Source: Streptomyces sp. LBL (GTDB lineage Bacteria; Actinomycetota; Actinomycetes; Streptomycetales; Streptomycetaceae). From it: a stretch of DNA of 64,000 bases. Where the stretch lies: the NCBI RefSeq assembly GCF_029893585.1, contig NZ_JARXYX010000003.1, positions 1 to 64,000 of the forward strand. Direction: 5' to 3'. The notes beneath the pieces were generated by a model that was not told the origin of the DNA, did not search any database, and worked only from the letters and a program-made list of their open reading frames with translations. Each line of letters begins with the position of its first letter. The stretch's first letter is position 1. Below, piece by piece: positions 43,905 through 58,522 of this stretch. The position numbers and the translations under genes were made by a program.

Positions 43905-43909
43905 GGGGA

Positions 43910-44617
43910 TCAGCCTACGTTTCCGAATGTGACGGGCAGGGAGGAAAGGGCGCGCGAGACGGTGGACGGGCGGTAGGCCGGCTCTCCGTCCAACGAGAGC
44001 CCGGGCAGTTTCGCGAAGACGAGAGGGACGGCGATGCGCGCCTCCAGCCGGGCCAACGGTGCTCCCAGGCAGTGGTGGATGCCGTGGCCGAAGGCCAGAC
44101 GGGAGCGTTCGCCGCGGGTGATGTCGAACTCGGCGCCGCTCAGGAAGCGGGCCGGGTCGCGGTCGGCGGCGGCCACGCTCAGCGCGACGGCCTCGCCCGC
44201 CGGGATGGTGACGTCTCCGATGCTGACCGGCTTGCGGGTGAAGCGCCAGATGACGTTCTGGATCGGACCGTCCCACCGGAGCGCTTCCTCGACGGCGTCG
44301 GGCCGGCGCTCCGGTTCCCGGGTCAGCAGATCGAGTTGGTCCGGGTGGCGCAGGAGTGCCAGGACGGTGCTGCCCAGCAGGTTCACGGTGGTCTCGTGCC
44401 CGGCGGAGAGCAGGAGCGCGAGCATCGAGACGAGTTCGTCCTCGCCGAGCCGGTCGGCCTCGTCGCGGGCCGCGATGAGCGCCGAGGTCAGGTCGTCGCC
44501 CTCCACCCGTTTACGTGCCGCCAACTCCCCGAGACAGCCGTGGACTTCCTGGAAGGCGGCCATCGCGGCCTCCCGGCTGTCCTCGTCGTTGCTCATCACC
44601 GCCTCGACGGCGCGCAA
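43910..44617 (-). pseudogene. Cytochrome P450, N-terminally truncated
   Basis: The last ~235 residues of a bacterial P450 are intact: I-helix LLSAGHETTVNLLGS, K-helix EEALRW (ExxR), the PAGEAVALSVAAADRD region and the heme-binding loop FGHGIHHCLGAPLAR with its Cys. A normal bacterial P450 is about 400 residues; helices A to H, including most of the substrate pocket, are absent. An in-frame TAG lies a few codons upstream of the first possible start (a TTG at 44617). Without the N-terminal half the product cannot work as a P450. Confidence 0.8.
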
Positions 44618-44790: not shown

Positions 44791-44822
44791 AGGGCCTCAG
44801 GGCCTCAGGGCCTCAGGGCCTC
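44791..44822. repeat. 8-bp tandem repeat AGGGCCTC x4 across a stop codon
   Basis: Four perfect units. The minus-strand glycosidase gene ends within the array (stop complement at 44813-44815), so the last residues (VLRP) and the stop are made of repeat sequence. Slippage here would change the C-terminus or extend the protein. Confidence 0.85.
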
Positions 44823-46978
44823 AGGACCACGCGGCCCGCGGCCGCGACGACGCGATCGCGCTCGGTGCGCGTGAACAGTCCCTCGGACAGCCATCCGTCC
44901 GCGAGGGCACGTACCGCCCTCACGAAGCGGCCGGAGGTGGCGAAGGGAGCCTGCTCCCAGAGCACGTCGAGGAAGGTCGGACCGTCAACGCGCGCGCGGT
45001 TGGGCACGCCCGAGTCGGTCGTGCCGAACACGACGACGGGTTCTGAGCGCTTGAAGTAGGCGTGATAGCGGGTGTCGTCCGCTACGTGGAACGGTGCGAG
45101 GGTCAGGCCGTGCGTGGTGAAGTGCATGGGGCGGCCCTCGGGTTTGACCGAGTCGGCGAGATCGCCCCGGAGCGTGAAGTCCTTGTAGAAGGAGAACGTG
45201 CGGAACTGCCGTTCCTGGCTCCGAGCGACCAGCAGGACCGGCCCGTAGAACACCGACTGGACGGCGGGGTCGTCCAGTGCCCTTTCGATGCGAAGGCGGT
45301 AGGGAGCGGAGATCCGGATCTGGTCGCCGGGTCGCCAGCTTCTGCTCAGGGTGAGGTAGCTGCCGGGCACCGCCTCGGCCTGTTGCCGGACCCCGTTGAC
45401 CGTGACGGTGAATCCTCCCGTGGCCCAGGACGGAACGCGGAGTCTCACGTCGAGTCTGCCAGTGCCCTCACGGATCGTCAGCGTGCGTACGCCCTCGGCC
45501 GGGTACACGCTCGTCTGCTCGACGACGAAGCCCCTCTCCGGCCACCGCAGCGTCGAGGCGAGAGAGAGGTTGACGTACAGCGTGCTGCCGTCGGCGGAGC
45601 AGAAGTAGACCGAGTCCTGGTACTTGGTGTGGTTCTCCATGCCGGTGCCGCCGCAGCAGGTGCCGGTGTTGTCGTACTCGCGCTGCGTCCCTGGGCCCAT
45701 CCCGACGAAGTAGGTGACCTCCGGGCTGTCCGTACTGGGGGTGTCCCGGCGTGAGGCGAGGATGTGGTTGGTCAGGCCCCGCTCGTAGTAGTCCATGTAG
45801 GCGGGGTCCTGCTGGTGGAAGAACAACTGCCGGCTCAGCTTGAGCATGTTGTACGTCGCGCAGGTCTCGGCGTTGTTGTCGTCCAGGGTGGCCGCGATGG
45901 CGCCCCGGGCTCGGAACATCTCACCCTGACCCGTACCGCCCAGGCTGTACATCCGGGGGTCCACGACCATCTTCCAGAAATTGCGGGCCGCGGCCGCGTA
46001 CTTCTCCTCCCCCGTGTGGTCGAACAGCCGCACATAGCCGGTGAACTGGGGAATGTGCTGGTTGGCGTGCCGGCCGTCGAGGACGTCGCGGTCCTCGGCA
46101 CAGGCGTCCAGCAGCGTGGTGTTGTCGAAGCAGCGGGCGGCCACGAGGTGCTCCTCGCGCCCGGTGAGGGCGTACAGGTCCGCCAACACCTCGTTCATCC
46201 CGCCGTACTCCCCCGCGATGTAGATCGACCACATCCGCTCCAGTTGTGCCTTCGGCAGGCGGCCGAGGCGGCTGTGCACCCAGTCGCCCATCGTCGAGGC
46301 GATGGTCAGGGCCTGCGCGTTCCCGGCCAGGGTGTGCGCGTCGAGGAGACCTCGCATGATCTTGTGGCAGGTGTAGTACGGCGCCCAGATGGTGGGGTAC
46401 GTCGTGTAGCCCTCCAGCAGGATGAACTGCGTCTCGGGGTACGCCGCCAGGTAGCCGGGGTGGCTCGGTTTCGGCGAGCCGTGCTCCGCCAGGGCCTGCT
46501 GGCACTCGCCGAGCGCTCCGACCAGGTAGTCCAGCTTGGTCTTGAGCGCGGCCTCCCCGGTGTCGGCGTACGCCTGGGCGATCAGAGTGAGGAAGTGGCC
46601 GCCGAAATGGCCGCGCAGATTGCCGTCGGAGGTCTCCCAACCGCCGGGCGCCTGGGCACCACGGGTGTCGAGCCCGGCGTTGGCCCGGAAGACGGCCAGA
46701 ATACGGTCGGCCGGGTACGCCCTGGCGAAGTCGAGCATCAGGTCGCGCTTGCGGCGGAACACGCTGTCGCCGAGGGTCACCTGGTCCAGTGGGAAGGGGC
46801 GCACAGCCCAGGTGGGCGGGGCGGGCACGGCCGCCGCGTCGGCCCGGACAGGCACCGCGGTCGGGATGGGGCCGGTCGCCTCGGCGTACGCCGAGGGGGT
46901 GGCGTACGCGAGCGGGGCCGCGGCCACGCTTCCGGCGGCGAGTTTCAACCAACGGCGTCGGGTGGGGGGTTGGGACAT
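44813..46978 (-). CDS. GH127-like (DUF1680) secreted glycosidase (721 aa)
   Basis: Glycoside hydrolase of the beta-L-arabinofuranosidase superfamily. The start ATG at 46978 has GGAG seven bases upstream. The N-terminus TRRRWLKLAAGSVAAAPLAYA is a signal peptide with a twin-arginine-like start (RRRW), so export is likely. The domain has the family Glu/Cys site AETCATYNMLKL and the CC pair in TCCGGTGMENHTKY, which in GH127 bind zinc and supply the Cys nucleophile. It also has GGMNEVLADLYALTG and the HANQHIPQF stretch of the (alpha/alpha)6 barrel, then beta-sandwich regions. It is the last gene of the transporter operon, 77 bp after the other GH127 gene. Confidence 0.85.
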   Translation of the reverse strand: MSQPPTRRRWLKLAAGSVAAAPLAYATPSAYAEATGPIPTAVPVRADAAAVPAPPTWAVRPFPLDQVTLGDSVFRRKRDLMLDFARAYPADRILAVFRANAGLDTRGAQAPGGWETSDGNLRGHFGGHFLTLIAQAYADTGEAALKTKLDYLVGALGECQQALAEHGSPKPSHPGYLAAYPETQFILLEGYTTYPTIWAPYYTCHKIMRGLLDAHTLAGNAQALTIASTMGDWVHSRLGRLPKAQLERMWSIYIAGEYGGMNEVLADLYALTGREEHLVAARCFDNTTLLDACAEDRDVLDGRHANQHIPQFTGYVRLFDHTGEEKYAAAARNFWKMVVDPRMYSLGGTGQGEMFRARGAIAATLDDNNAETCATYNMLKLSRQLFFHQQDPAYMDYYERGLTNHILASRRDTPSTDSPEVTYFVGMGPGTQREYDNTGTCCGGTGMENHTKYQDSVYFCSADGSTLYVNLSLASTLRWPERGFVVEQTSVYPAEGVRTLTIREGTGRLDVRLRVPSWATGGFTVTVNGVRQQAEAVPGSYLTLSRSWRPGDQIRISAPYRLRIERALDDPAVQSVFYGPVLLVARSQERQFRTFSFYKDFTLRGDLADSVKPEGRPMHFTTHGLTLAPFHVADDTRYHAYFKRSEPVVVFGTTDSGVPNRARVDGPTFLDVLWEQAPFATSGRFVRAVRALADGWLSEGLFTRTERDRVVAAAGRVVLRP

Positions 46979-47055
46979 GCTCGGACTCCGGTCGTCGGTG
47001 GTCGGCGGGTAAGGGTGGTGGTACGGAGACCGCGGGGTCATGGGGCAGCCTGCGG

Positions 47056-49029
47056 TCACGGATGGGTGCTGTCCGGCGGGGTGGCACGGTCCGCTTCCAC
47101 GGCCGGCAGCCACACCCGCACCGACGAAGGCCCCCGGTTCGCCCAGGAGTGATAAGGGACCAGGACGATCCCCGTGCGGTCGGCGGGCGGCGCGGCGGTG
47201 GTCGCGTCGAGGGGCCGGTACGGCCAGGTCTCGTCGCGCCGCCCGTCGTACGCGGTGATCTGGCCGGCGGCGACCACCGTGCCGTCCGGCCCGTCCTCCG
47301 GCGACGCGGACGGGTCCACCCGAATCACGTCGACGTCGTGTCCGTCCGGCAGGTCCACGGACTCGGCGCAGTACACCAGCGGCCCGCGCTGGAGGGCAAC
47401 CGTGCCGCGGACGGCGTCGACGCGCGGGTCGGCCCGGATCCAGCGCGGCCGTACGGGCAGTTCGAGCCGGATCTCGTCACCGGGCCGGAAACCGCGGGTC
47501 ACCTCGGTCATGCCCGGGGGGACGGTGCGGCGGATCCCGTCCGGGTCGACCAGCCATACCGTGGCGCCCGCCGTCCACGCGGGGACGCGCAGCGACACGG
47601 TCCACGGGCGGTCCGACGACGACCGGTCGATGCGCACGGTCACGCTTGAGCCCGACGGATAGTCGGTTCGGACGCGCAGCGCGACCCCGTGGCCGCCTTC
47701 GAGCGACGTGGCGATCTCCGCGTCGGCGTACTGGTGCAGTTGCACGCCGTGGTCGTCGGCCGTCGCGAGGTACGCGGGCAGCTGGGCCAGCGTCCGCGCC
47801 ACATTGGTCGGACAGCAGGACACCGCGAACCAGGGCGCGCGCAGGCTCGACTCGGCGCGCGCGCTCACCGCGTCCATGGCGGGCATGGCGCCCCGGTGGC
47901 GTCGGTGCAGGGTGTTGGCGTAGAAGAAGGCCCGGCCGTCCTCCGCCGGGGACGTCGCGACCACATTGAACAGGGTTTGCTCGGCGAGGTCGGCGAACCG
48001 CGGCTCGCCGGTGGCCAGCAGGAGCCGCCAGCTGAGCATCACGGAGGCGACGCCGGCGCAGGTCTCCGAGTAGGCGCGGTCCGGCGGGAGGACGAAGTCG
48101 TCGCCGAATGACTCGTCCTGGTGGTGCGAGCCCATGCCGCCCGTCAGATAGGTCCGTCGGGCGACCGTCGCCTCCCACTGCCGTACGACCGCGTCGAGCA
48201 GGTCGTCGTCCCCGGTCTCCACGGCCACGTCGACGGCGCCGGCCGCGAGGTAGAGGGCGCGGACGGCGTGGCCGCGCAGCACCGTGGCCCGTCGTACGGG
48301 CAGGTCGTCCTGGTAGTAGGCGCGGCCGAACTCGCCGTCCCCGAGCGTGCCGTGGCCGCGGCGGTCGACGAAGAGCGCGGCCTGGTCGAGGTAGCGCTGT
48401 TCCCCCGTCAGCCTGGCCAGTTCCACCAGGGCTGTCTCGATCCCGGGGTGGCCGCAGACGCCTTCGATGCCGCCCCGCCCGAAGGTGGCGCAGACGTGGT
48501 CGGCCGCTCCTCGGGCGATCTTCGTCAGTTCGCCCTCGCCCCGGGCCCGGGCCTGGGCCACGCCCGCCTGGATCAAGTGTCCGTGGCAGTAGAGCTCGTG
48601 GCCCCATTCGAGGTCGCTGTAGCGGGGCTGCTGTCCGGGGTGGCCGAACGCGGTGTTCAGGTAGCCGTCCGGTGACTGGGCGGGCGCGACAGCCCCGGTG
48701 AGTGCGGCGATGTCGGTGTCGAGCGTGCCCGCGGCGCCGGCCTGCCAGGCCATGGCTTCGAGGAGCTTGTAGAGCTCGGAGTCGGCGAACTCCCGGCCGC
48801 GCCGGTCCCGGTGGACGCGACCCTGCGCGGCGGCCCGGAAGTTGCCGGTCCAGCCGACCCTTTCCATCCAGTCCCGGCAGTGGCCGAGGGTAACGCTCTC
48901 GTTGATGTGCCGGCGGCGGGCCCAGAACCCCCCGGTGATCCTGACCTCGTCGAGACCGAGCGGTCGCAGCCTGCCACGGGTCGGTGCCACGGGCAGGACG
49001 AGTGATCCCGCTGTGTTCTCCTTCACCAC
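47056..49029 (-). CDS. GH127 beta-L-arabinofuranosidase-like glycosidase (657 aa), cytoplasmic
   Basis: Closer to the characterised bifidobacterial HypBA1 type than its neighbour. Motifs are RRRHINESVTLGHCRDWM, CGHPGIETALVELARLTGE, the zinc/nucleophile residues in AYSETCAGVASVM and AVSCCPTNVARTLAQLP, and LQRGPLVYCAESVDLP at the end of the beta domain. No signal peptide, so it should act on imported oligosaccharides. The start is taken as the GTG at 49029 (GAAGG seven bases upstream); a second GTG follows directly. Placed after two sugar permeases, it likely removes beta-L-arabinofuranose from short imported glycans. Confidence 0.88.
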   Translation of the reverse strand: MVKENTAGSLVLPVAPTRGRLRPLGLDEVRITGGFWARRRHINESVTLGHCRDWMERVGWTGNFRAAAQGRVHRDRRGREFADSELYKLLEAMAWQAGAAGTLDTDIAALTGAVAPAQSPDGYLNTAFGHPGQQPRYSDLEWGHELYCHGHLIQAGVAQARARGEGELTKIARGAADHVCATFGRGGIEGVCGHPGIETALVELARLTGEQRYLDQAALFVDRRGHGTLGDGEFGRAYYQDDLPVRRATVLRGHAVRALYLAAGAVDVAVETGDDDLLDAVVRQWEATVARRTYLTGGMGSHHQDESFGDDFVLPPDRAYSETCAGVASVMLSWRLLLATGEPRFADLAEQTLFNVVATSPAEDGRAFFYANTLHRRHRGAMPAMDAVSARAESSLRAPWFAVSCCPTNVARTLAQLPAYLATADDHGVQLHQYADAEIATSLEGGHGVALRVRTDYPSGSSVTVRIDRSSSDRPWTVSLRVPAWTAGATVWLVDPDGIRRTVPPGMTEVTRGFRPGDEIRLELPVRPRWIRADPRVDAVRGTVALQRGPLVYCAESVDLPDGHDVDVIRVDPSASPEDGPDGTVVAAGQITAYDGRRDETWPYRPLDATTAAPPADRTGIVLVPYHSWANRGPSSVRVWLPAVEADRATPPDSTHP

Positions 49030-49035
49030 TTCATG

Positions 49036-49131
49036 CCTTCGGTTGTCCCTTCGGTTGTCCGGCCAGGTCGTTGGGCGAGATCATTGAGCGAGGTCGTTCG
49101 GCGAGATCGTTGGGCGAGATCGTTCGACGCA
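49036..49131. repeat. 12-bp x2 and 13-bp x5 tandem repeats between permease and glycosidase genes
   Basis: CCTTCGGTTGTC occurs at 49036-49047 and 49048-49059. Five imperfect 13-bp units of the type (A/G)TCGTTGGGCGAG run from 49067 to 49131. They fill the 116-bp gap between the second permease and the glycosidase, the largest gap within the importer part of this operon. Confidence 0.88.
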
Positions 49132-49145
49132 TCGGCCATCAGTCA

Positions 49146-49985
49146 TCAGCCCTTGAGCGCGCCTGACATGAAGCCCCGTATGTAGTGCCGTTGCAGCAGC
49201 AGGAACAGGAACAGGCAGGGCACGGCGAGGACCACCACGCCCGCCTCGGTGGCGCCGTAGTCGACGGCGCCCATGCTCTGCTGCCGCAGGTTCGCGACGG
49301 CGAGTGGCAGCGGCGCCTTCTCGCTGTCGGAGATGAGGATCAGCGGTGCGATGAAGTCGTTCCAGGCCGCGAGGAACGCGAAGAGACCGACGGTGATCAG
49401 TCCCGGTCGCACCGCCGGAAGGAGGACCCGCCGCAGGGCGCCGGCCGTGCCGCAGCCGTCGACCAGCGCCGACTCCTCCAGTTCGCGGGGCACCGCCTCG
49501 AAGGAGATCCTCATCATGAAGGTGGCGAACGGCAGTTGGAACATGGCCAGCACCAGGCTCAGTCCGATCAGCGAGTTCTGCAGATGGAGTCTGCCGAGCA
49601 GCACGTAGAGAGGGATGAGGAGGGTGGCGTAGGGGACCATGAGGATGGCCAGGGTCACCAGGAACAGCAGGTTCTTGCCGGGGAAGTCGAAGCGGGCGAA
49701 GGCGTAGCCGCCCAGCAGCGACACTCCGAGGGTCAACGCGACGGTCAGCGCGGAGACTACGGTGCTGTTGAGGAGGTATCGCCACAGGCCCGCGTCGTAG
49801 TCGAGCAGCGTCCGGTAGTTGCCCAGGCCGTAACCGGACTCCTGTGCGGTGCCGGGCTGTCCGCTGACGGAGGCCCAGGCGTTCCACAGCAGCGGAAAGA
49901 GGAAGACGACGGCCAGACCTCCGGCAACGACGTAGTGGGGCGTGCGACCGAGGGCGCGGGTCAGCACCGTGGTGTCCCTTCTCAT
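49146..49985 (-). CDS. ABC sugar permease, CUT1 family, MalG-like (279 aa)
   Basis: Six hydrophobic segments. The cytoplasmic EAA loop reads ELEESALVDGCGTAGALRRVLLP, in sequence EESALVDGCGTAG then RRVLLP, the contact site for the ATPase. It ends YIRGFMSGALKG, typical of MalG-like permeases. It begins 10 bp after the first permease with little room for its own ribosome site, so translation is probably coupled. With the neighbouring permease and binding protein it forms an importer for an oligosaccharide. No ATPase is encoded nearby; Streptomyces commonly shares the MsiK ATPase for such systems. Confidence 0.93.
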   Translation of the reverse strand: MRRDTTVLTRALGRTPHYVVAGGLAVVFLFPLLWNAWASVSGQPGTAQESGYGLGNYRTLLDYDAGLWRYLLNSTVVSALTVALTLGVSLLGGYAFARFDFPGKNLLFLVTLAILMVPYATLLIPLYVLLGRLHLQNSLIGLSLVLAMFQLPFATFMMRISFEAVPRELEESALVDGCGTAGALRRVLLPAVRPGLITVGLFAFLAAWNDFIAPLILISDSEKAPLPLAVANLRQQSMGAVDYGATEAGVVVLAVPCLFLFLLLQRHYIRGFMSGALKG

Positions 49986-49995
49986 GAGCTGCGGC

Positions 49996-50958
49996 TCATG
50001 ACTCGTCGGCGCGGCGCAGACCGCGGAACTGGAGGACGTTGAGCAGGAGCAGCACGCCCAGCACAGCGATCGACAGGGCCGCCGCGGTGCCCAGGTCCAT
50101 CCGCTGGAAGGCCTCGCGGTAGATCAACTGGACGACGGTGACGGTGCTGTTGTCCGGTCCGCCCTTGGTGAGGATGAAGAACTGGTCGAAGGCGAGCAGT
50201 GATCCGGTCACGCACAGCAGCAGCGTCAGGGCGAGGGACGGCCGCAACAGCGGCAGTGTGATGGAGCGGAAGATCTGGCCGCGGCTCGCGCCGTCCATGC
50301 GGGCGGCCTCGAACACCTCCTGGGGGATGCGCTGGAGGCCCACGAGAAGGATCAGCATGTAGAAGCCGGCGAACTTCCAGACGATGAGGAAGACCGTCGA
50401 CAGCAACGCGGAGGTCGGTGTGCCGAGGAAGGACACCGGGTCGTCGACCAGGCCGAGTTTTCCCAGGATGCGGCTGAGCGGGCCGGTGGTGGGGCTGTAC
50501 AGGCCCCAGAACAGCAGGGAGGCGGAGGCGAGTCCCAGGGCACCGGGCAGGAAGTAGACGGTACGGAAGAAGCCGGCCCCGGGCCGGGACTCCTGCACCA
50601 GCAGGGCGAGGAGAAGGGCGAGACCGAGGAGGACGACCGTGACGATCACGGTGTAGAGGAGGGTGAAGCGGACCGCGGGCCAGAACAGGGTGCTGTCGGT
50701 CGCGTCGGTGTAGTTCTCGGGGGCGTTGAGGCCCCGGTCGCCCGCGAGGAGCGGCCAGTCGCTGAGCGACATCTGCCCGACGAGCAGCAGCGGCAGCAGG
50801 AAGAACACCGCGACGAACACGGCGGTGGGGGCCGCGTAGGCGAGACCCTTCGCTTTGCGGGACCGCCATCGAGGTGGGGTGGCACGGGACGGACGGACCC
50901 GGCGTTCCGGCCGGGTCCGGGGTTCGGCCGCCGCTGGGTCGGCTGCCTTGACCTGCAT
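49996..50958 (-). CDS. ABC sugar permease, CUT1 family, MalF-like (320 aa)
   Basis: A basic ~35-residue cytoplasmic N-terminus is followed by six membrane segments, starting AYAAPTAVFVAVFFLLPLLL. The EAA loop is present (EVFEAARMDGASRGQIFRSITLP, split as EAARMDGASRGQ and RSITLPLL), with TKGGPDNSTVTVVQLIY after it, typical of CUT1 permeases. The ATG at 50958 has GAGGAGA upstream. It lies 73 bp downstream of the binding-protein gene. Confidence 0.93.
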   Translation of the reverse strand: MQVKAADPAAAEPRTRPERRVRPSRATPPRWRSRKAKGLAYAAPTAVFVAVFFLLPLLLVGQMSLSDWPLLAGDRGLNAPENYTDATDSTLFWPAVRFTLLYTVIVTVVLLGLALLLALLVQESRPGAGFFRTVYFLPGALGLASASLLFWGLYSPTTGPLSRILGKLGLVDDPVSFLGTPTSALLSTVFLIVWKFAGFYMLILLVGLQRIPQEVFEAARMDGASRGQIFRSITLPLLRPSLALTLLLCVTGSLLAFDQFFILTKGGPDNSTVTVVQLIYREAFQRMDLGTAAALSIAVLGVLLLLNVLQFRGLRRADES

Positions 50959-51031
50959 GACTCTCCTCTGCCGTGCGACGTGGGAGGGGTTCTGCGGGGC
51001 CGCCGGTGTTCGTTCAGCCGGCCCGTGCCGT

Positions 51032-52348
51032 TCAGTCGGCCAGCGAGGCGCTGACCGCGTCGTTGTCCTTGTCGACGGACGTCCCGTCGCCGAAGACGGC
51101 GTCGCGCATCAGACTCAGCCAGGGCCCGTTGGGGTCGTTGAAGGTCTGGCCGAACTTCAACGCGTACGGGGTACGGCCGTCAGCCACGAGTTCGTTGATC
51201 GTCACCAGCCGCGGGTCCGCCTTGGAGTACTTGTTGGATGCGAGGTCGGTGCGCGCCACCACGTCCTTGTGCGCGGCGACCACCTCGACCTGTGCCTTGT
51301 CGTCCAGGGACCAGGCGAGGAAGTTCCAGGCCTGGTCGGCGGACCTGCTGGTGGCGGAGATGCCGATGGCGTCACCGCCGACGAAGGTGGATGTGCCGCC
51401 GTCGGGTCCGGGGATGGGCGCGACGCCGAGGTCGAGGTCCTTGGGCATCAGCCCCAGGGTGGTCGACGGCATGGGCATGACGCCGACCTTGCCCTTCGGG
51501 AAGACCCCGGTCCAGGTCGTGCCGGTCTCCTCGCGGGCGCCGGGGGCCACGATGTCGTCCTTCACCCACCCGCGGTAGGTGTCGTAGACCTTCTTCGCGG
51601 TGTCGGAGGCGAGAGACGCCTCGGTTCCCTCCTTGTTCAGCACCTCTTCCCCGGCGGCCCAGACGGACGGCCACCAGGTGAAGACGCCGCAGCCGCCGCA
51701 GTTGCCGCCGAAGAAGGTGCCGTTGACGCCTGAGCCCAGCGCGTCCACGGCCCGTGCCTGCCGGTCCCACTCACTCAGACTGGTGGGCGGCTTGTCGGGG
51801 TCGAGCTTCGCCTTTCGGTAGAGGTTCTTGTTGTAGAAGAGCACCGACAGGTCGAGGGTGTGCGGTACGACGTACTTCTTGCCCTCGTACGTGCCGGCCT
51901 TGATGTGGGACTGGGCGAGGTGCTCGGCGAAGGGCAGGGCGTCGATGCGTTCGGTGAGGTCGGCGAAGAGTCCGCTGGAGGTGTAGTTCGGCACGAACAC
52001 CACGTCGGAGGCGAACAGGTCGGGCAGGTCCTTGGCTCCGGCGGCCGCACCGACCTTGGCCTGGTAGTCGTCGGTGGGGACGACGGTCAGCTCGATCGTG
52101 TTCTTGTGGCTGGCGTTGTACGCCTTGACCAGCGCCTCGCTCTGCGGCCGGGTCGCCGCGCGCGTCCACATCGTCAGCGTCGCACCGTCGTCGACGCCGT
52201 CGGCATCCGCCGCCCCGCTTCCTCCCTCACCGCCCGAGCCGCCTTCGCCCGACCCGCACGCCGTGACCAGACCCGCCGCGGCGAGCAGGGCTACGGCGCC
52301 GGTGACGAGACGGCGTACGCGTCCACGTGGTCCGACCGTGCTGCCCAT
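51032..52348 (-). CDS. Extracellular solute-binding lipoprotein, CUT1 sugar importer (438 aa)
   Basis: The N-terminus has RRLVTGAVALLAAAGLVTAC with the lipobox LVTAC, so the mature protein is anchored through Cys at about residue 31 and followed by a Gly/Ser linker. The domain shows family-1 binding-protein features (TLTMWTRAATRP, VGVMPMPSTTLGL, FVGGDAIGISATS, AWNFLAWSL). It should capture the oligosaccharide and hand it to the two downstream permeases. First gene of a five-gene minus-strand operon, divergent from the LacI gene. Start ATG at 52348 with GAGGGGGAG upstream. Confidence 0.94.
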   Translation of the reverse strand: MGSTVGPRGRVRRLVTGAVALLAAAGLVTACGSGEGGSGGEGGSGAADADGVDDGATLTMWTRAATRPQSEALVKAYNASHKNTIELTVVPTDDYQAKVGAAAGAKDLPDLFASDVVFVPNYTSSGLFADLTERIDALPFAEHLAQSHIKAGTYEGKKYVVPHTLDLSVLFYNKNLYRKAKLDPDKPPTSLSEWDRQARAVDALGSGVNGTFFGGNCGGCGVFTWWPSVWAAGEEVLNKEGTEASLASDTAKKVYDTYRGWVKDDIVAPGAREETGTTWTGVFPKGKVGVMPMPSTTLGLMPKDLDLGVAPIPGPDGGTSTFVGGDAIGISATSRSADQAWNFLAWSLDDKAQVEVVAAHKDVVARTDLASNKYSKADPRLVTINELVADGRTPYALKFGQTFNDPNGPWLSLMRDAVFGDGTSVDKDNDAVSASLAD

Positions 52349-52447
52349 GTTCGCTCCCCCTCTTGTCGCGGCCGGCCGCGCGGCCGGCCGTCGGGACGAT
52401 GGATGCCGATGGCTGTGGTGGCGCTGGACCGTGCGAACGGGAAGGAA

Positions 52448-52463
52448 CCGAAAAGGTTTTCTG
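52448..52463. promoter_or_regulatory. LacI-type operator candidate 1
   Basis: CCGAAAAGGTTTTCTG contains inverted arms GAAAA and TTTTC around GG. It is 100 bp upstream of the binding-protein start, in the divergent promoter region, and is matched by a near copy at 53737-53752. Probable target of the adjacent LacI-family regulator. Confidence 0.65.
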
Positions 52464-52550
52464 AGACGCTAGAACTCGACCTGTTACTCGTCAATCCCCT
52501 TGCAACGAACGAGTGTCGACGGATCGTCGCATGGCACGACGGATCCGTCC

Positions 52551-52573
52551 GAAACCTTTCGCGTAACCTTTCG
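52551..52573. promoter_or_regulatory. LacI-type operator candidates 2 and 3 (autoregulatory)
   Basis: GAAACCTTTCG (52551-52561; arms GAAA/TTTC) is followed closely by GTAACCTTTCGCG (52563 onward). The core matches the other sites on the opposite strand (AAAGGTTTC). They lie about 70-90 bp before the regulator start, consistent with autoregulation. Confidence 0.55.
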
Positions 52574-52640
52574 CGTACTGTTTTACGCCCGACGTGTCAG
52601 CCTCGACGGCCTCGGCACGCGACGCGAGACAGGAGCACCC

Positions 52641-53669
52641 ATGGCACGGGCCACCGACCCCTCTCGTTCGCAGCCCGCCACGCTCAGCGACGTCGCCCGG
52701 TTGGCAGGCGTGTCCATCGCCACCGCGTCCAAGGCCCTCAACGGCCGCAGTCAGGTGCGCGCCGAGACCCGGCAGCGGGTGGTCGACGCGGCCGAGCGAC
52801 TGTCGTTCCGGCCCAACCAGCTGGCCCGCGGTCTGCTCGCCGGGCGCACGGGCACCGTCGGTCTGCTCACCAGCGACCTGGAGGGCCGGTTCAGCATCCC
52901 GATCCTCATGGGCGCCGAGGATGCCTTCGGAGCGGGCGAGGTCGCGGTGTTCCTGTGCGACGCCCGTGGTGACGCGATCCGCGAGCAGCACTACGTCCGC
53001 GCGCTGCTGGGCCGCCGGGTCGACGGCCTCATCGTGGTGGGCAGCCGGACCGACCCGCGCCCGTCCCTGGGCCGCGAGTTGCCCGTCCCTGTCGTCTACG
53101 CGTACGCGCCGTCGGAGGATCCGGCGGATCTGTCCATCGTCCCCGACAGTGTGGGCGCAGGCCGGATCGCCGTGGAGCATCTGCTCGCCTGCGGCCGTCA
53201 CCGGATCGCGCACATCACCGGCGACCCCGGGTATCTCGCGGCACGGGAGCGGGCCGAGGGCGCCCGGTCAGCGCTCGCCGACGCCGGCCTCGCCCTGGTG
53301 GGCGAACCTCGGTTCGGGGTGTGGTCGGAGGGCTGGGGGCGGGCGGCCACCGCGATGCTGCTCGACCAGGATCCGGACGTCGACGCCGTCCTGTGCGGCA
53401 GCGACCAGATCGCCCGCGGCGTCATGGACGTACTGCGCGAGCGGGGCCACCGGGTACCGGAGGACGTGGCGGTCATGGGCTTCGACAACTGGCGGGTTCT
53501 CACCTCTGCCTCCCGTCCCCCGCTGACCAGCGTCGACATGAACCTCGAACAGGTCGGGCGGGCGGCCGCGCACGCCCTCTTCGGCGCGATCGCCGGGGCT
53601 CGGCGCTCGGGCGCCGAGGCCCTGCCCTGCCGCGTGGTGATCAGGGGCTCCACCGCGCCGTTGTCCTGA
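52641..53669 (+). CDS. LacI-family transcriptional regulator (342 aa)
   Basis: The N-terminal helix-turn-helix reads TLSDVARLAGVSIATASKAL, followed by the hinge helix NQLARGLLAGRTGTVGLL. The ligand domain has the periplasmic-binding-protein fold (GLIVVGSRTDP, HITGDPGYLAARERAEG, DAVLCGSDQIARGVMDVL, VAVMGFDNW). The ATG at 52641 has AGGAG upstream; a longer frame from 52500 lacks a site. Divergent from the importer operon and upstream of the secreted glycosidase, it probably represses both in the absence of an arabinose-type sugar; the shared operator-like sites support this. Confidence 0.93.
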   Translation: MARATDPSRSQPATLSDVARLAGVSIATASKALNGRSQVRAETRQRVVDAAERLSFRPNQLARGLLAGRTGTVGLLTSDLEGRFSIPILMGAEDAFGAGEVAVFLCDARGDAIREQHYVRALLGRRVDGLIVVGSRTDPRPSLGRELPVPVVYAYAPSEDPADLSIVPDSVGAGRIAVEHLLACGRHRIAHITGDPGYLAARERAEGARSALADAGLALVGEPRFGVWSEGWGRAATAMLLDQDPDVDAVLCGSDQIARGVMDVLRERGHRVPEDVAVMGFDNWRVLTSASRPPLTSVDMNLEQVGRAAAHALFGAIAGARRSGAEALPCRVVIRGSTAPLS

Positions 53670-53736
53670 GCGCCGCGGCCGGTGCACCGGGGCCTCGTCC
53701 ATCCCTCTTGACACTTCCGGGGCCCGGACCTACGTT

Positions 53737-53752
53737 GCGAAAACCTTTTAGG
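53737..53752. promoter_or_regulatory. LacI-type operator candidate 4, upstream of the secreted glycosidase
   Basis: GCGAAAACCTTTTAGG; its reverse complement CCTAAAAGGTTTTCGC matches site 1 in 13 of 16 positions. TTGACA at about 53708-53713 lies upstream and could be a -35 element, placing this operator over or just after the -10 region. The 266-bp gap after the LacI gene shows no other gene. Confidence 0.6.
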
Positions 53753-53935
53753 TCGTTTCAGCACCTCCCGGAGACTCGGGGGACCGCCTCTCCGACCGTT
53801 CCTCCTCTCCGTTCTCCAGCGCTTCGCCCTGCACAGTTTATGTCATGAGCACTACATGAGCGACGGCAGCCGATGCCCCGTCACCATGCGCGCCCGGGTG
53901 CAGAGGCTTGCTGTCGATCGGACAGGGAGCATCCG

Positions 53936-56900
53936 ATGAGAAGACGACGGACGGCGGTCCCCGGCGGGGCCGACAGCGCGTCCCACCGGTACGACGCCGG
54001 CGCACGAGGCGACGGCAAGCACGGCCCGGCTCCGGCCGGAATCGGCCCCGACGGCCGTTCGGCTGTCGGGAGTCCAGGAACGGCAGGCCCTGTGCTGAAG
54101 CGTCTCCTCGTCGCACTGGTGCTCACCGTCTGTTCCGTCTTCACCGCGACCCCGGCCCACGCGGCGCAGACCATCGGGTTCCCCACGTTCGGCGGACCCG
54201 CGATCCCGTCCCCGCCCGTCGCCTACACACCGGGCGACATGATGCGGAGCATCTACGACGCGGAGAGTTCGGGAACCGATTTCTGGATGGACCGCCTGCT
54301 GGCCCGCTCCGGCAACGACCCGGCCGGACCCTGGCTGATGAGCCGTGGCCGCGCCGTCTTCATGAAGGAGCACGACCCCTCCAAGCTCGGGTTCGGCGGC
54401 AAGGTCGCCTACTGGGAGAGCATCAACGACAACAGCGCCTACACCGTCGCGATCACCCCGGGCACCTTCACCGAGCAGGTCTCCCAGCGTTGGCAGGCGC
54501 CCAGTCACTGGAAAAGCGTGCACACTAGCGGCTCGATCACGGTCAACCAGACCAAGTTCATCACCGACAACAACGTCGCCGTGACCAACCTGTCCATCAG
54601 GAACGGCGGCACGAGCTCCACCACACTGCAGTTACGGGCGACCTCCCCGTACGCCACCACGGGCACCGGCAGCGAGCTGACCGGGCAGGTGAACGCCTAC
54701 AACAACCTCACGACCATCCGCCCACGGCTCACCGGCGACGGCTTCACCGCCACCGGCGGCGGCCTCAACCGGTCGGTGACGATCGCGGCCGGAGCCACGG
54801 TGACCGCGAAGGTGGTGATGGGCTTCGTCACCGACGAGATCCCCGAGTCCCTCACGGAGTACAACGCCTACGCGGGCTACTCCCCCGCGACCGCGTTCGC
54901 GACCCACGTCCGGGCCTACAACCTGTGGTGGGCGCAGAACGTGCCCTACATCGACGTACCCGAGGCCGCGATCAAGAAGAGCGTCTACTACCGCTGGTGG
55001 CTGATGCGCTTCAACAACCTCGACGCCGACATCCCCGGGCAGACCTTCCAGTTCCCGACCTCCACCGAGGGCGTCCTCGGCTACAACAACGCGATCGCCC
55101 TCACCCAGCCCATGCACATCGACGACCTCAAGTACCTGCGCAACCCGGCCTACGCGTACGGGGACTGGCTCAGCGTCGGCCAGACCTCCAAGGGCGGCCG
55201 CTTCCTGGACAACCCGGGCGACCCGGAGAACTGGTCCAACAGCTACACCCAGTACATCGCCGAGGCCGCCTGGAAGAGCTACCAGATCCACGGCGGTCAG
55301 CCGGCGATCGCGGGCAATCTGGCCCACTACGCGGAGGGCGACGTCAAGGGCCAACTCGCCACCTACGACCACGACAACAACAAGCTGATCGAGTACGACT
55401 GGGGCGCCCTGACCGGCAACGACGCCGACGCGGTCTCGTTCCACTGGAAGCCCGGAAACATGGACCGCGCCGAGTCCGCCTACCAGTACAGCGGCGCGCT
55501 CGCCGCCGCGCAGGCCTACGAGGCGATCGGCAACACGGCCAAGGCCACCGAGATGCGCACGCTCGCGACGCAGATCAAGGACGCGATCGTCAACGTGCTG
55601 TGGAACCCCAACCGGCAACTGTTCGAGCACCGGTTGAAGTCGACCAACGAGTGGGTACCGTGGAAGGAGATCAACAACTACTACCCGTTCTCGGTCGGAG
55701 CCGTCCCCAACACCGCGACCTACAAGCAGGCCCTGCGTCTGTTCGACGATCCGGCCCAGTACCCCGTCTTCCCCTTCTACACGGCCAACCAGGTCGACAA
55801 GAAGGCGGCGGCCGACGCCGGGTCTCCGGGCTCGAACAACTTCTCCACCATCAACTCCACGGTCCAGTTCCGGCTGTACTCCTCGGTGCTGCGCAACTAC
55901 CCCAACTCCTGGATGAACGCGACCGACTACAAGAAGCTGCTCTACTGGAACACCTGGGCGCAGTACATCGGCGGCGACACCCGGTGGCCCGACGCCAACG
56001 AGTTCTGGGCCGACTGGAACGGCAGCTCGATCGACTACCGCTCCTGGATCCACCACAACATCCTGGGCAGCAGCAACTGGACCGTGATCGAGGACGTCGC
56101 CGGTCTGCGGCCCCGCAACGACGCCAAGGTCGAACTCTCCCCGATCGGCATCGGCTGGGACCACTTCACCGTCAACAACCTCCGCTACCGGGGCTCCGAC
56201 CTGTCCGTCGTCTGGGACGATCCGGCCGACGGCGTGGTGCGCTACCCGGGCGTCCCGGAGGGCTACTCGATCTACGTCAACGGCAACCGGGTCGCCACCG
56301 TCAACTCGCTGGTGCCCTTCACGTGGGACCCGGCCACCGGTGACGTCACCACGACCGGCACGGTCACCCACCACACGGCCGTCCCCGGCCTCAAGGCTCC
56401 CCACCAGGTCGTGCAGGACAGCCCCCGGCTGGTCGACATGTTCGCCAAGGCCGGTGTCGACCTGACCGCCGATCTGACCGATCTCGCCGCCGGGGCGACG
56501 GCGTCCGCCTCCCACACCGGCTCCGGCAGCACCGTCTCCGGCGCGGTCGACGGCTATCCCACCAACGAGCCGTACTGGGGCGCCGGCGGCTCCGCCAACA
56601 GCCAGGACTGGTACGAGCTGAACCTCAACGCCGCCCGCACGTTCAACGAGGTGCGCCTGTACTTCAAGGACAGCCGCCCGGCGAGCACCACCTACCGGGC
56701 TCCGTCCGCGTACAGCATCCAGTACTACAACGGCAGTACGTGGGTGGACGTGCCCGGCCAGACCAAGAGCCCGGCGGCACCACGGGCCAACTACAACCTG
56801 GTGCGGTTCCCCGCGGTCGACGCCCAACGCGTAAGAGTGCTGGCCACGAACGCCTCCGGGGCCAAGACGGGCCTCACCGAGGTGAAGATCTTCAACCGGG

Positions 56901-57364
56901 GTGGCGTCCAGCCACCGGCCAACCTGGCGACGTCCGCGACGGCTTCGGCCTCGTACACCTCCTCCTGGGAGAGCGTCAGCGCCGTCAACGACGGCATCGA
57001 CCCGCCGTCCTCCAACGACACCGTGAACCCGCGCTGGGGCACCTATCCCGAGACCGGACAGCAATGGGCCGAACTGACCTGGCCGTCGGCGAAGACCATC
57101 GACAAGGCCCAGGTCTACTTCTTCGACGACGACCAGGGCATCGACATGCCCGCCTCATGGAAGCTCCAGTACTGGAACGGCAGCGCCTACGTCGACATGC
57201 CGGGAGCGAGCGGCTACCCCCTGGCCACCAACCAGTACAACACCGTCACGTTCGCCGCGACGAACACCACCCGGCTCCGGGTGCAGCTCACCGGCAACGG
57301 CACCAACTCTGTCGGGCTTCTCGAGGCAAAGGTGTACGGCCCCACCACCACCTCCACGCGATGA
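53936..57364 (+). CDS. Secreted MGH1-like (alpha/alpha)6 glycoside hydrolase with two F5/8-C (CBM32-like) modules (1142 aa)
   Basis: The ATG at 53936 has CAGGGAG upstream but gives a 52-residue polar leader before the signal peptide LKRLLVALVLTVCSVFTATPAHA. A GTG at 54092 would start directly at that signal and is a serious alternative. The catalytic region (~75-840) has the barrel signature of MGH1/GH63-like enzymes (YYRWWLMRFNN, NAYAGYSPA, VSFHWKPGNMDRAESAYQYSG-like stretch, WADWNGSSIDYRSW). Two discoidin/F5-8-C modules follow (~870-1010 and ~1020-1140: ATASASHTGSGSTVSGAVDG and ATASASYTSSWESVSAVNDG), probably glycan-binding. The bond cleaved is unknown; the locus suggests an arabinose-bearing plant glycan or glycoprotein. 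Confidence 0.85.
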   Translation: MRRRRTAVPGGADSASHRYDAGARGDGKHGPAPAGIGPDGRSAVGSPGTAGPVLKRLLVALVLTVCSVFTATPAHAAQTIGFPTFGGPAIPSPPVAYTPGDMMRSIYDAESSGTDFWMDRLLARSGNDPAGPWLMSRGRAVFMKEHDPSKLGFGGKVAYWESINDNSAYTVAITPGTFTEQVSQRWQAPSHWKSVHTSGSITVNQTKFITDNNVAVTNLSIRNGGTSSTTLQLRATSPYATTGTGSELTGQVNAYNNLTTIRPRLTGDGFTATGGGLNRSVTIAAGATVTAKVVMGFVTDEIPESLTEYNAYAGYSPATAFATHVRAYNLWWAQNVPYIDVPEAAIKKSVYYRWWLMRFNNLDADIPGQTFQFPTSTEGVLGYNNAIALTQPMHIDDLKYLRNPAYAYGDWLSVGQTSKGGRFLDNPGDPENWSNSYTQYIAEAAWKSYQIHGGQPAIAGNLAHYAEGDVKGQLATYDHDNNKLIEYDWGALTGNDADAVSFHWKPGNMDRAESAYQYSGALAAAQAYEAIGNTAKATEMRTLATQIKDAIVNVLWNPNRQLFEHRLKSTNEWVPWKEINNYYPFSVGAVPNTATYKQALRLFDDPAQYPVFPFYTANQVDKKAAADAGSPGSNNFSTINSTVQFRLYSSVLRNYPNSWMNATDYKKLLYWNTWAQYIGGDTRWPDANEFWADWNGSSIDYRSWIHHNILGSSNWTVIEDVAGLRPRNDAKVELSPIGIGWDHFTVNNLRYRGSDLSVVWDDPADGVVRYPGVPEGYSIYVNGNRVATVNSLVPFTWDPATGDVTTTGTVTHHTAVPGLKAPHQVVQDSPRLVDMFAKAGVDLTADLTDLAAGATASASHTGSGSTVSGAVDGYPTNEPYWGAGGSANSQDWYELNLNAARTFNEVRLYFKDSRPASTTYRAPSAYSIQYYNGSTWVDVPGQTKSPAAPRANYNLVRFPAVDAQRVRVLATNASGAKTGLTEVKIFNRGGVQPPANLATSATASASYTSSWESVSAVNDGIDPPSSNDTVNPRWGTYPETGQQWAELTWPSAKTIDKAQVYFFDDDQGIDMPASWKLQYWNGSAYVDMPGASGYPLATNQYNTVTFAATNTTRLRVQLTGNGTNSVGLLEAKVYGPTTTSTR

Positions 57365-57376
57365 AGGGTGTGCCCA

Positions 57377-58522
57377 GTGACCCGTTCCAGATTCCTGTCC
57401 GTGCTCACCGCCGTGCTCGCCATGGTGGTCGCCTTCCTGGTGGCGCCCCCGCCAGCTGCCGCAGCCGTCACGTTCACCTCGACCGGGGTGAACCAGAACG
57501 GTGGTAACTGCCTTGATCTGCCGGGCAGTTCGTCGACCGACGGAACACAGCTGCGCTCGTTCACATGCGGCTCCGGAGCGAACCAGAACCTCGGCTTCAC
57601 TCCCGTCCCGGGGTCGAGCGACCTCTACACGATCACCACTCAGTCCGGTCAGTGCGTCGATGTCTCCGGCGCGTCCACAGCGGACAACGCCGCGATCATC
57701 CAGTGGCCCTGCCACGACGGGACGAACCAGCAGTGGCGGCTCACGCCGGTGTCGGTGAACGGCACGGACAAGACCTTCAACCTGGTCTCCGTCAGCTCCG
57801 GCAAGTGCGTGACGCCGAGCGGCGGTTCGTCGGCCTCGAACACCAACCTGGTGCAGCTGCCGTGCGCCACCGCGAACGGCAGGGTGTGGCGGCTGCCCGG
57901 CTTCGCCGGCAGCGGCGGCGACCCGGCCACGCCTCCGGCAAAGACCGTCCGGGTGTACTGGCTGAAGCCCTCCGACGTCCCGTTCGACCAGCGCTACCCC
58001 GACGGCATCGCCAACGTGATGCGGGAGGCGCAGCGCTACTACAAGCAGGAGCTCGGCAAGACCTTCACGCTGAACAACCCCGTGGTCGAGGTCGTGGGCG
58101 GTGACCAGCCGCGGAGCTGGTACGAGAACACGCCCAATGGCGGTGACCGTTACTGGTGGGCCGTCACGAACATGCAGAACGAACTCGCCAGAAAGTTCGG
58201 CCTGGACAACCCCGACAGCCGGTGGCTCAACGTGGGCGAGATCAGCGCCGAGGGGGAAGGCGCGGGCGGGGGCGCCAGTCCTGGATGGGTCGTGCTGAGC
58301 GGGCACGACGCCGACGGCGCCGCAGGCACCAGCGGACAGTCGATGAACCGCTGGTACGGCGGGATGGTGCACGAACTCGGACACGCCTTCGGCCTGCCGG
58401 ACGCGGCCTCGACCGACGGCACACCGATGTCCGCGTCCTTCTACGACTACCCGAACACCCACTTCAACCAGAGTCAGAAGAACCAGATCCTGAACGGCCC
58501 GTACGGGAGTTTCCTGTCCTGA
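57377..58522 (+). CDS. Secreted ricin-B (CBM13) protein with a zinc-metalloprotease-like domain (381 aa)
   Basis: The GTG at 57377 is chosen (GAAGGG upstream, overlapping the end region of the previous gene); a GTG three codons earlier is possible. A signal peptide is followed by a ricin-type beta-trefoil (~35-170: CLDLPGSSSTDGTQL, CVDVSGASTADNAAIIQWPC, CVTPSGGSSASNTNLVQLPC), then a Pro/Thr linker. The C-terminal domain (~185-381) contains HELGHAFGLPD, an HExxHxxGxxD zinc site, with SFYDYPNTHF and NQILNGPYGSFLS downstream. A lectin plus zinc-protease pairing suggests cleavage of glycosylated protein, but the protease family is not recognised. It should be translated with the upstream glycosidase. 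Confidence 0.75.
   Translation: MTRSRFLSVLTAVLAMVVAFLVAPPPAAAAVTFTSTGVNQNGGNCLDLPGSSSTDGTQLRSFTCGSGANQNLGFTPVPGSSDLYTITTQSGQCVDVSGASTADNAAIIQWPCHDGTNQQWRLTPVSVNGTDKTFNLVSVSSGKCVTPSGGSSASNTNLVQLPCATANGRVWRLPGFAGSGGDPATPPAKTVRVYWLKPSDVPFDQRYPDGIANVMREAQRYYKQELGKTFTLNNPVVEVVGGDQPRSWYENTPNGGDRYWWAVTNMQNELARKFGLDNPDSRWLNVGEISAEGEGAGGGASPGWVVLSGHDADGAAGTSGQSMNRWYGGMVHELGHAFGLPDAASTDGTPMSASFYDYPNTHFNQSQKNQILNGPYGSFLS

What the first reader, a model, noticed from the sequence alone, without database searches (positions are those of the whole stretch)
44813..58522. Complete locus for a beta-L-arabinofuranosyl glycan, with a protease arm
Two GH127-family enzymes (one secreted, one cytoplasmic), an importer lacking an ATPase, a multidomain secreted glycosidase and a secreted lectin/zinc-protease are grouped under one regulator. 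In bifidobacteria GH127 with GH121 degrades hydroxyproline-linked arabinans of extensins; a lectin-protease would fit attack on such a plant glycoprotein. This combination is not one I know as described in Streptomyces.
Basis: partly seen in the sequence, partly recalled or inferred. Interest (0 to 1): 0.6.

Follow-up and report, generated by a model that had tools for sequence, protein, structure and literature searches.

The report
Streptomyces locus for plant extensin arabinans
This soil bacterium carries a gene set that looks built to strip and import the arabinose chains of plant cell-wall extensin-type proteins, and the zinc protease beside it fits a pattern that recurs in related bacteria, which suggests that the protein backbone is attacked as well as its sugars.

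Summary
The locus is real and its likely substrate can be named more firmly. The 'multidomain secreted glycosidase' is a GH121 homologue of HypBA2 with all three essential acids. The binding protein's nearest solved relative is, by far, the B. longum beta-L-arabinobiose-binding protein. The secreted 'GH127' is GH146, the cytoplasmic one GH127; conserved operators flank the LacI gene. It is a beta-L-arabino-oligosaccharide locus for hydroxyproline-rich plant glycoproteins, combining Bifidobacterium-style import with a Xanthomonas-style secreted GH146.

Two things are new. (1) It is not complete: the 23 other sampled Streptomyces genomes with this GH121 all keep an orthologous GH43, and 37 of 37 named Streptomyces loci have it 1.0-1.5 kb downstream. 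Here it is gone, and the lectin-protease gene is a chimera of the GH43's lectin and a neighbouring protease (crossover about 57884-57910). (2) The protease arm is accessory but recurrent: three unnamed secreted zincin types co-occur with GH121 (9 of 10, 11 of 11, 17 of 24 genomes), sometimes adjacent, and share binding modules with its enzymes. The excess over arbitrary stretches is modest (20/80 vs 6/60). No activity was tested.

The parts
44813..47113 (-). Secreted GH146 beta-L-arabinofuranosidase homologue; likely start 46978 (MSQPPTRRRWLKL..., twin-arginine-like signal, by eye)
   Evidence: PF07944 303 bits; 5opj 282 bits; acid/base Glu, ETC and CC of the zinc site align
47056..49029 (-). 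Cytoplasmic GH127 beta-L-arabinofuranosidase homologue (no signal peptide by eye)
   Evidence: PF07944, PF20736 and PF20737; 4qjy 310 bits; Glu, ETC and CC align
49146..49985 (-). ABC permease, MalG-type
49996..50958 (-). ABC permease, MalF/UgpA-type
51032..52348 (-). Lipoprotein solute-binding protein, nearest the beta-L-arabinobiose-binding protein of B. longum
   Evidence: 6lce/6lcf 354 bits, next chain 82 bits; identity of 6LCE from PMC8106489
52448..52463 (.). Operator-like site CCGAAAAGGTTTTCTG before SBP
   Evidence: only 1-mismatch match to CCGAAAAGGTTTTCGG in the genome
52548..52563 (.). Operator-like site TCCGAAACCTTTCGCG before LacI
52641..53669 (+). LacI-family regulator (BauR-like in position)
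   Evidence: ORF can begin at 52500
53737..53752 (.). Operator-like site GCGAAAACCTTTTAGG before GH121
   Evidence: 29 of 29 Streptomyces loci examined have [GC]CGAAAACCTTT[TC]AGG before GH121
53873..57364 (+). Secreted GH121 beta-L-arabinobiosidase homologue with two C-terminal F5/8-type modules (true start probably downstream, about 54093, by eye)
   Evidence: HypBA2 model 825 bits, 6m5a 612.5 bits, E383/D515/E713 equivalents conserved
57368..57883 (+). Signal peptide and ricin-type lectin part of the chimeric gene, derived from a lectin-GH43 gene
   Evidence: lectin 73-91% identical to 31 Streptomyces lectin-GH43 proteins (65% and 50% to two from other genera), 57-61% to the lectins of two lectin-protease proteins
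57884..57910 (+). Crossover zone of the fusion that removed GH43 and the second lectin
   Evidence: DNA identity switches from copy 1 to copy 2 within a stretch shared by both copies
57923..58522 (+). Secreted zincin-type metalloprotease domain; HELGHAFGLPD at 58370-58402
   Evidence: no Pfam or NCBIfam model reaches its cut-off; nearest solved match is the OgpA active-site motif (E 2e-4)

Best explanation
A LacI-controlled utilisation locus for the beta-L-arabino-oligosaccharides of hydroxyproline-rich plant glycoproteins (extensins, solanaceous lectins). Proposed working: secreted GH121 releases Araf-beta1,2-Araf from Ara3-Hyp; the lipoprotein SBP and two permeases import the disaccharide, powered by an ATPase encoded elsewhere; cytoplasmic GH127 splits it to L-arabinose; secreted GH146 removes the last Araf-beta-Hyp; the lectin-borne zinc protease cuts the backbone. 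Shown by sequence: gene identities, catalytic residues, conserved neighbourhood, operators, and the fusion that removed GH43. Inferred: substrates, direction of regulation, shared ATPase, protease target. The ancestral locus also had a secreted lectin-GH43, presumably for the terminal alpha-Araf of Ara4-Hyp, which this strain has lost.
For: GH121 with E383/D515/E713 equivalents (roles from PMC7263609). SBP nearest the beta-arabinobiose-binding protein, 354 vs 82 bits. GH127 and GH146 with the clan's active-site residues (PMC10850190). Same gene set as the predicted BauR1 regulon of bifidobacteria (PMC5928203) and the Xanthomonas enzymes (PMC6085000). Core genes near GH121 in other actinobacteria. 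Operators conserved; the best genome match and one of the three next best are here. Protease co-occurrence and adjacency. Shared binding modules.
Against: No activity, binding or induction was measured. The window-type protease is in 3 of 80 GH121 loci, 2 of them adjacent, and 61 of 80 have none of the four recurring types. Against arbitrary 20-kb stretches the excess is modest (20/80 vs 6/60, one-sided p = 0.019), and no test was corrected for relatedness. 7 of 24 genomes with the c18 protease lack a strong GH121, and most copies of c16 and c18 are not beside GH121. The protease fold could not be predicted (pLDDT 36). No canonical arabinose isomerase domain was found. The GH43 step is missing.
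Confidence: 0.77

Rival explanations
1. The lectin-protease is a passenger: a general secreted protease that happens to sit by GH121 in some strains and does not act on the glycoprotein.
For: Present in only 10 of 295 Streptomyces genomes and 3 of 80 GH121 loci. Not next to GH121 in G062, G108, G120 and G105. Excess over arbitrary stretches only p = 0.019.
Against: 9 of the 10 genomes also carry strong GH121 (26 of 295 do), and it is adjacent in 6 of 10. Two other zincin types show the same association in another family, and members carry a module 64-72% identical to GH121's own. The window-type protease bears a lectin like that of its GH43 neighbour.
Confidence: 0.3
2. The sugar target is another plant beta-L-arabinofuranoside (arabinogalactan protein, arabinan or rhamnogalacturonan II), not Hyp-linked arabinan.
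For: GH146 and GH127 families include enzymes for other beta-Araf linkages and for aceric acid (PMC10850190); the cytoplasmic GH127 scores 337 bits on the aceric-acid hydrolase model; the GH121 here is a relative, not an orthologue above the model's cut-off.
Against: The two GH121 enzymes described in the papers I read act on Ara3-Hyp (PMC6085000, PMC8106489); the SBP is nearest the beta-Ara2-binding protein; the aceric-acid model's cut-off is 950 bits.
Confidence: 0.13
3. The missing GH43 and the chimeric lectin-protease are an assembly error, and the locus is in truth the full ten-gene form.
For: 23 of 23 other genomes with the GH121 orthologue have the GH43 orthologue; tandem lectin genes are repeats; no reads could be checked.
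Against: The two lectins are only about 60% identical in protein and the shared DNA at the switch is short; the frame is kept; the contig is 355 kb and the genome 99.94% complete with no other copy.
Confidence: 0.1

Closest known systems
Bifidobacterium longum hypBA1-hypBA2-hypAA / BauR1 locus
   Same: GH121, cytoplasmic GH127, beta-arabinobiose ABC importer, LacI regulator
   Different: Here a secreted GH146 and a lectin-protease are added, GH43 is lost, and GH121 ends in F5/8-type modules and is shorter than the 1709-position HypBA2 model
Xanthomonas euvesicatoria xehypBA1-xehypBA2-xehypAA
   Same: Secreted GH146 with GH121; a peptidase gene (prolyl oligopeptidase, frameshifted) lies beside the locus
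   Different: Here a beta-Ara2 importer, a cytoplasmic GH127 and a LacI regulator are present; the protease is a secreted zincin; GH43 is absent
OgpA O-glycopeptidase of Akkermansia muciniphila (6z2d)
   Same: Short active-site stretch WYGGM.HELGH; secreted enzyme type; works on O-glycoproteins
   Different: Similarity covers about 32 residues only; third zinc ligand would be Asp here; substrate glycan would be Hyp-arabinan, not mucin GalNAc
Zincins c16 (L074 type) and c18 (L100 type) near GH121 in Streptosporangiaceae
   Same: Secreted HExxH proteins co-occurring with GH121; some carry GH121's C-terminal module
   Different: No whole-domain similarity to the window protease was shown; different domain make-up

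Membership tests
HypBA/BauR1-type beta-arabinobiose utilisation locus | GH121 with Glu383, Asp515 and Glu713 equivalents | tested here: met
   alignment to 6m5a; roles from PMC7263609
HypBA/BauR1-type beta-arabinobiose utilisation locus | Binding protein of the beta-arabinobiose type with two permeases | tested here: met
   sequence only: (354 vs 82 bits); ligand binding not testable
HypBA/BauR1-type beta-arabinobiose utilisation locus | Cytoplasmic GH127 | tested here: met
   absence of a signal peptide judged by eye
HypBA/BauR1-type beta-arabinobiose utilisation locus | Local LacI regulator with operators before the structural genes | tested here: met
   binding not testable
HypBA/BauR1-type beta-arabinobiose utilisation locus | GH43 alpha-L-arabinofuranosidase (HypAA role) in the locus | tested here: not met
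   absent here; a lectin-GH43 is in 37 of 37 named Streptomyces loci, nearest solved 3akf; equivalence to HypAA not shown
HypBA/BauR1-type beta-arabinobiose utilisation locus | Activity on Ara3-Hyp and growth on it | not testable with these tools
   needs enzyme assays
GH146 (secreted enzyme) | Closer to GH146 than to GH127, with acid/base Glu and zinc-binding Glu-Cys3 | tested here: met
   alignments; residues from PMC10850190; no tree made
Aceric acid hydrolase (GH127) | Score above the NCBIfam equivalog cut-off | tested here: not met
   336.7 of 950 bits
OgpA O-glycopeptidases | Three His zinc ligands, HExxHxxxxxH | tested here: not met
   HELGHAFGLPD has Asp in third place; OgpA ligands from PMC7518263
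OgpA O-glycopeptidases | Homology over the catalytic domain | tested here: inconclusive
   profile match over about 32 residues; AlphaFold model unusable
M6 metalloproteases | Score above family cut-off | tested here: not met
   TIGR03296 31 of 110.8 bits; PF05547 12.6 of 22 bits

The most novel reading that the evidence does not exclude
Actinobacteria that strip Hyp-linked arabinans have repeatedly recruited unnamed zincins as 'plant mucinases': glycoproteases that recognise arabinosylated or freshly trimmed Ser-Hyp backbones, brought to the wall by the same binding modules as the glycosidases. They would be plant-side counterparts of gut O-glycopeptidases, and this strain has fused such a protease to the lectin of its lost GH43.
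Probability: 0.28. Interest if true: 0.75.

Novelty: new variant of a known kind. Interest (0 to 1): 0.52.

Why it matters
Extensins cross-link plant cell walls, and their Hyp-linked arabinans are the part that microbes must remove. GH121 has been presented as found mainly in bifidobacteria and Xanthomonas (PMC7263609). Here an import-type GH121 locus is shown in many Streptomyces (scab species among the record titles), Streptosporangiaceae and Micromonosporaceae, in some with a partner metalloprotease. This names specific, testable proteases for hydroxyproline-rich glycoproteins and could give tools for reading plant O-arabinosylation. If the proteases prove to act elsewhere, what remains is an ordinary but undescribed carbohydrate locus with a neat gene fusion.

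Tried and rejected
Considered and rejected: both clan GH-P enzymes as GH127 (makes one GH146); the missing ATPase as a defect (two ATPases over the UgpC-type cut-off elsewhere; that Streptomyces sugar importers share the ATPase MsiK is recalled, from no call); the cytoplasmic GH127 as aceric acid hydrolase (337 of 950 bits); the lectin-protease as a conserved core gene (3 of 80 loci).

Led nowhere: AlphaFold of the window protease (pLDDT 36) and of the c18 protease (pLDDT 43), so no fold search was run; PDB profile search of c18 (no hit); literature searches for glycoproteases of arabinosylated Hyp (71 papers hold two of three terms, 12 listed, none of those 12 titles about such a protease) and for extensin with metalloprotease in Streptomyces (one paper, on Frankia, seen in the listing only).

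The GH121 tree (quick method) held 65 of 80 loci plus the window; 15 loci were dropped because my extraction required an exact motif in a called gene, and four of those 15 carry a protease of interest. It needs 12 changes for 'any protease'; gain and loss cannot be told apart.

Full report
What is there. The coordinates hold eight genes. Minus strand: a secreted enzyme (44813-47113), a cytoplasmic enzyme (47056-49029), two permeases (49146-49985, 49996-50958) and a lipoprotein solute-binding protein (51032-52348). Plus strand: LacI (52500 or, by ATG, 52641 to 53669), a 1163-aa secreted protein (53873-57364) and a lectin-protease (57368-58522).

The 1163-aa protein matches NCBIfam's HypBA2 model with 825 bits (equivalog cut-off 3200; best stretch ends at position 1033 of 1709) and the HypBA2 crystal structure 6m5a with 612.5 bits. 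The three acids found essential by mutagenesis (E383, D515, E713; PMC7263609, passages read) are conserved in the contexts PTSTEGVLGYNN, LTGNDADAVSF and PDANEFW.

The importer points to the same sugar. The binding protein's best solved relative is 6lce/6lcf, 354 bits, against 82 for the next chain. A review identifies 6LCE as the B. longum beta-arabinobiose-binding protein, which exclusively binds beta-Ara2 (PMC8106489, passages). Two ATPases over the UgpC-type cut-off lie elsewhere in the genome, so the missing ATPase gene is no anomaly; that one of them serves this importer is inferred.

Two different clan GH-P enzymes. The secreted one is GH146 (282 bits to 5opj, 176 and 175 to 8k7y and 8k7x, 35-60 to GH127-type chains). 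The cytoplasmic one is GH127 (310, 299 and 267 bits). The zinc-site and acid/base residues align in both. In Xanthomonas the secreted XeHypBA1 prefers Ara-Hyp and the GH121 releases beta-Ara2 from Ara3-Hyp (PMC6085000, passages); PMC10850190 (passages) places XeHypBA1 in GH146. In B. longum beta-Ara2 is imported and split by cytoplasmic GH127 (PMC8106489, PMC5928203; passages). The locus here has parts of both routes.

Regulation. AAASSTTT occurs three times in the 64-kb window, all in this locus (52452, 52552, 53741). Of the 80 loci, the 49 with both LacI and SBP found were examined; 49 of 49 have at least one AAASSTTT, and 29 of 29 Streptomyces loci among them have [GC]CGAAAACCTTT[TC]AGG before GH121. 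In the own genome CCGAAAAGGTTTTCGG with up to 3 mismatches gave 64 matches on both strands, against 13 for the reversed control; the only 1-mismatch match and one of the three 2-mismatch matches are in this locus. The bifidobacterial counterpart is the predicted BauR1 regulon (PMC5928203, passages).

Conservation. A scan of one genome for each of 84,980 species confirmed 280 GH121 relatives and kept the best 80: 37 Streptomyces and 43 others. Present in the fetched stretch, some cut by contig ends: in the 37 Streptomyces loci SBP 29, permeases 27 and 27, GH127 27, LacI 32, GH146 14 (the 10-kb flank barely reaches it), lectin-GH43 37; in the 43 others GH127 26, LacI 27, permeases 22 and 21, SBP 21, GH146 6, lectin-GH43 3, a different GH43 30. 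In 295 sampled genomes of the window's genus, 33 match GH121 at E <= 0.001, 26 strongly (E below 1e-290), 24 of these with a copy of 88% identity or more, the own genome included; one of the 24 (G228) has a stop inside.

The locus is not complete here. In five relatives in which the protease is adjacent (L127-L131) the order is GH146-GH127-permeases-SBP | LacI-GH121-[lectin-GH43]-[lectin-protease]; 5 of 5 have all of these. The window has GH121-[lectin-protease]. Its lectin is 73-91% identical to the lectins of 31 Streptomyces lectin-GH43 proteins (65% and 50% to L103 and L111), but 61% and 57% to those of the lectin-protease proteins of S. bobili (L039) and Streptomyces sp. IBSBF 2953 (L075), whereas its protease domain is 96% and 92% identical to theirs. 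On DNA, in 40-base blocks, identity to copy 1 of G236 is 85-100% up to 57884; copy 2 of G236 is 42-90%-type low before that in all but one block (57488-57527, 90%) and 85-97% from 57885 to the stop. The switch lies in a short stretch that both copies share. In all 37 named Streptomyces loci a GH43 of at least 89% identity to that of L034 begins 992-1451 bases after the GH121 match, same strand (for distance, identity and presence). In the 295 genomes the GH43 orthologue (91-98%) is in 24; all 23 other genomes with the GH121 orthologue have it, the own genome does not (no match at 1e-100, best own match 41%), and the 24th, G239, has only the 60% GH121 paralogue. An assembly error is unlikely but not excluded.

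The protease arm. The window-type protease is in 10 of 295 genomes (one, G105, in two frames); 9 of the 10 have strong GH121 and in 6 it lies 1.4-3 kb from the GH121 match on the same contig. In 170 genomes of the family of G417 (it holds a genome, G625, whose GH121 is 100% identical to that of Streptosporangium L070), GH121 is strong (over 200 bits; paralogues and fragments included) in 29. There a zincin of the type HEYGHAVAFHSD (c16) is in 11, one of them (G417) only as fragments; 11 of 11 have strong GH121, and it is within 10 kb in 3. A zincin of the type HE.GH.FGLDDFYDW (c18) is strong in 24, of which 17 have strong GH121, within 10 kb in 5; five further genomes have only weak fragments, not counted. 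Hypergeometric values are 7e-10, 6e-10 and 1e-10, not corrected for relatedness, so they overstate. Of the 80 GH121 loci, 20 have a secreted-like gene with HE-x-[GAS]-H, against 6 of 60 stretches of 20 kb that I placed at round positions in 12 genomes (one-sided Fisher p = 0.019). By similarity, 19 of 80 hold one of four types (window type 3, c16 8, c18 8 with one Streptomyces, c82 2). Module B of GH121 matches 6 of 7 c16 proteins, 2 of 6 c18 proteins and the L082 protease at 64-72% identity; L100's c18 carries CBM2, a cellulose-binding domain. A peptidase gene also lies beside the Xanthomonas genes (PMC6085000). I read this as repeated recruitment of proteases to the same substrate; that remains inference.

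What the protease is. No Pfam or NCBIfam model reaches its cut-off. A 12-sequence profile finds OgpA at E 2e-4 over about 32 residues; W and HELGH are shared, but the third ligand would be Asp instead of His. AlphaFold failed. By motif it is a zincin endopeptidase; membership of a named family is not shown.

Novelty. The searches (an open library; most subscription papers are missing) gave no description of this locus in Streptomyces, only family counts (PMC13403950, PMC6998099; passages). PMC6085000 names homologues in Streptosporangium, Actinosynnema and Micromonospora. The glycan part is a known kind; GH146, lectins and zincins around it, and the fusion, make it a new variant.

Noticed in passing
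own genome (G000): No match to the arabinose isomerase domain PF02610 in a genome 99.94% complete; how released L-arabinose is used is unexplained.
   Followed up: no
L036 and L064 near base 700; G108, G228, G239, G248, G253, G254, G120: A second GH121 paralogue, 57-60% identical and larger (open frames 1408-2062 aa in the genus sample), occurs in some Streptomyces, in a few close to this locus.
   Followed up: partly
L070:6100-8178 and L074, L081, L097, L102, L109, L110: Secreted zincin HEYGHAVAFHSD (c16) with no Pfam peptidase match and a C-terminal module like that of GH121; all 11 genomes with it in the family sample have strong GH121.
   Followed up: partly
L070:13218-14600 and L076, L091, L100, L101, L112: Secreted zincin HE.GH.FGLDDFYDW (c18), with CBM2 in L100, near GH121; no solved relative by profile.
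   Followed up: partly
L066:1262-1984: S. tauricus locus has a lectin-less window-type protease about 8 kb from GH121 and also a c18-like match.
   Followed up: no
G105:C1:5844727-5845319: The protease homologue is split over two frames, in a genome without a GH121 match.
   Followed up: no
window 43347-44617: By eye, a cytochrome P450 that looks cut short at its start and an NADPH-dependent reductase just left of the locus; no family search was run.
   Followed up: no
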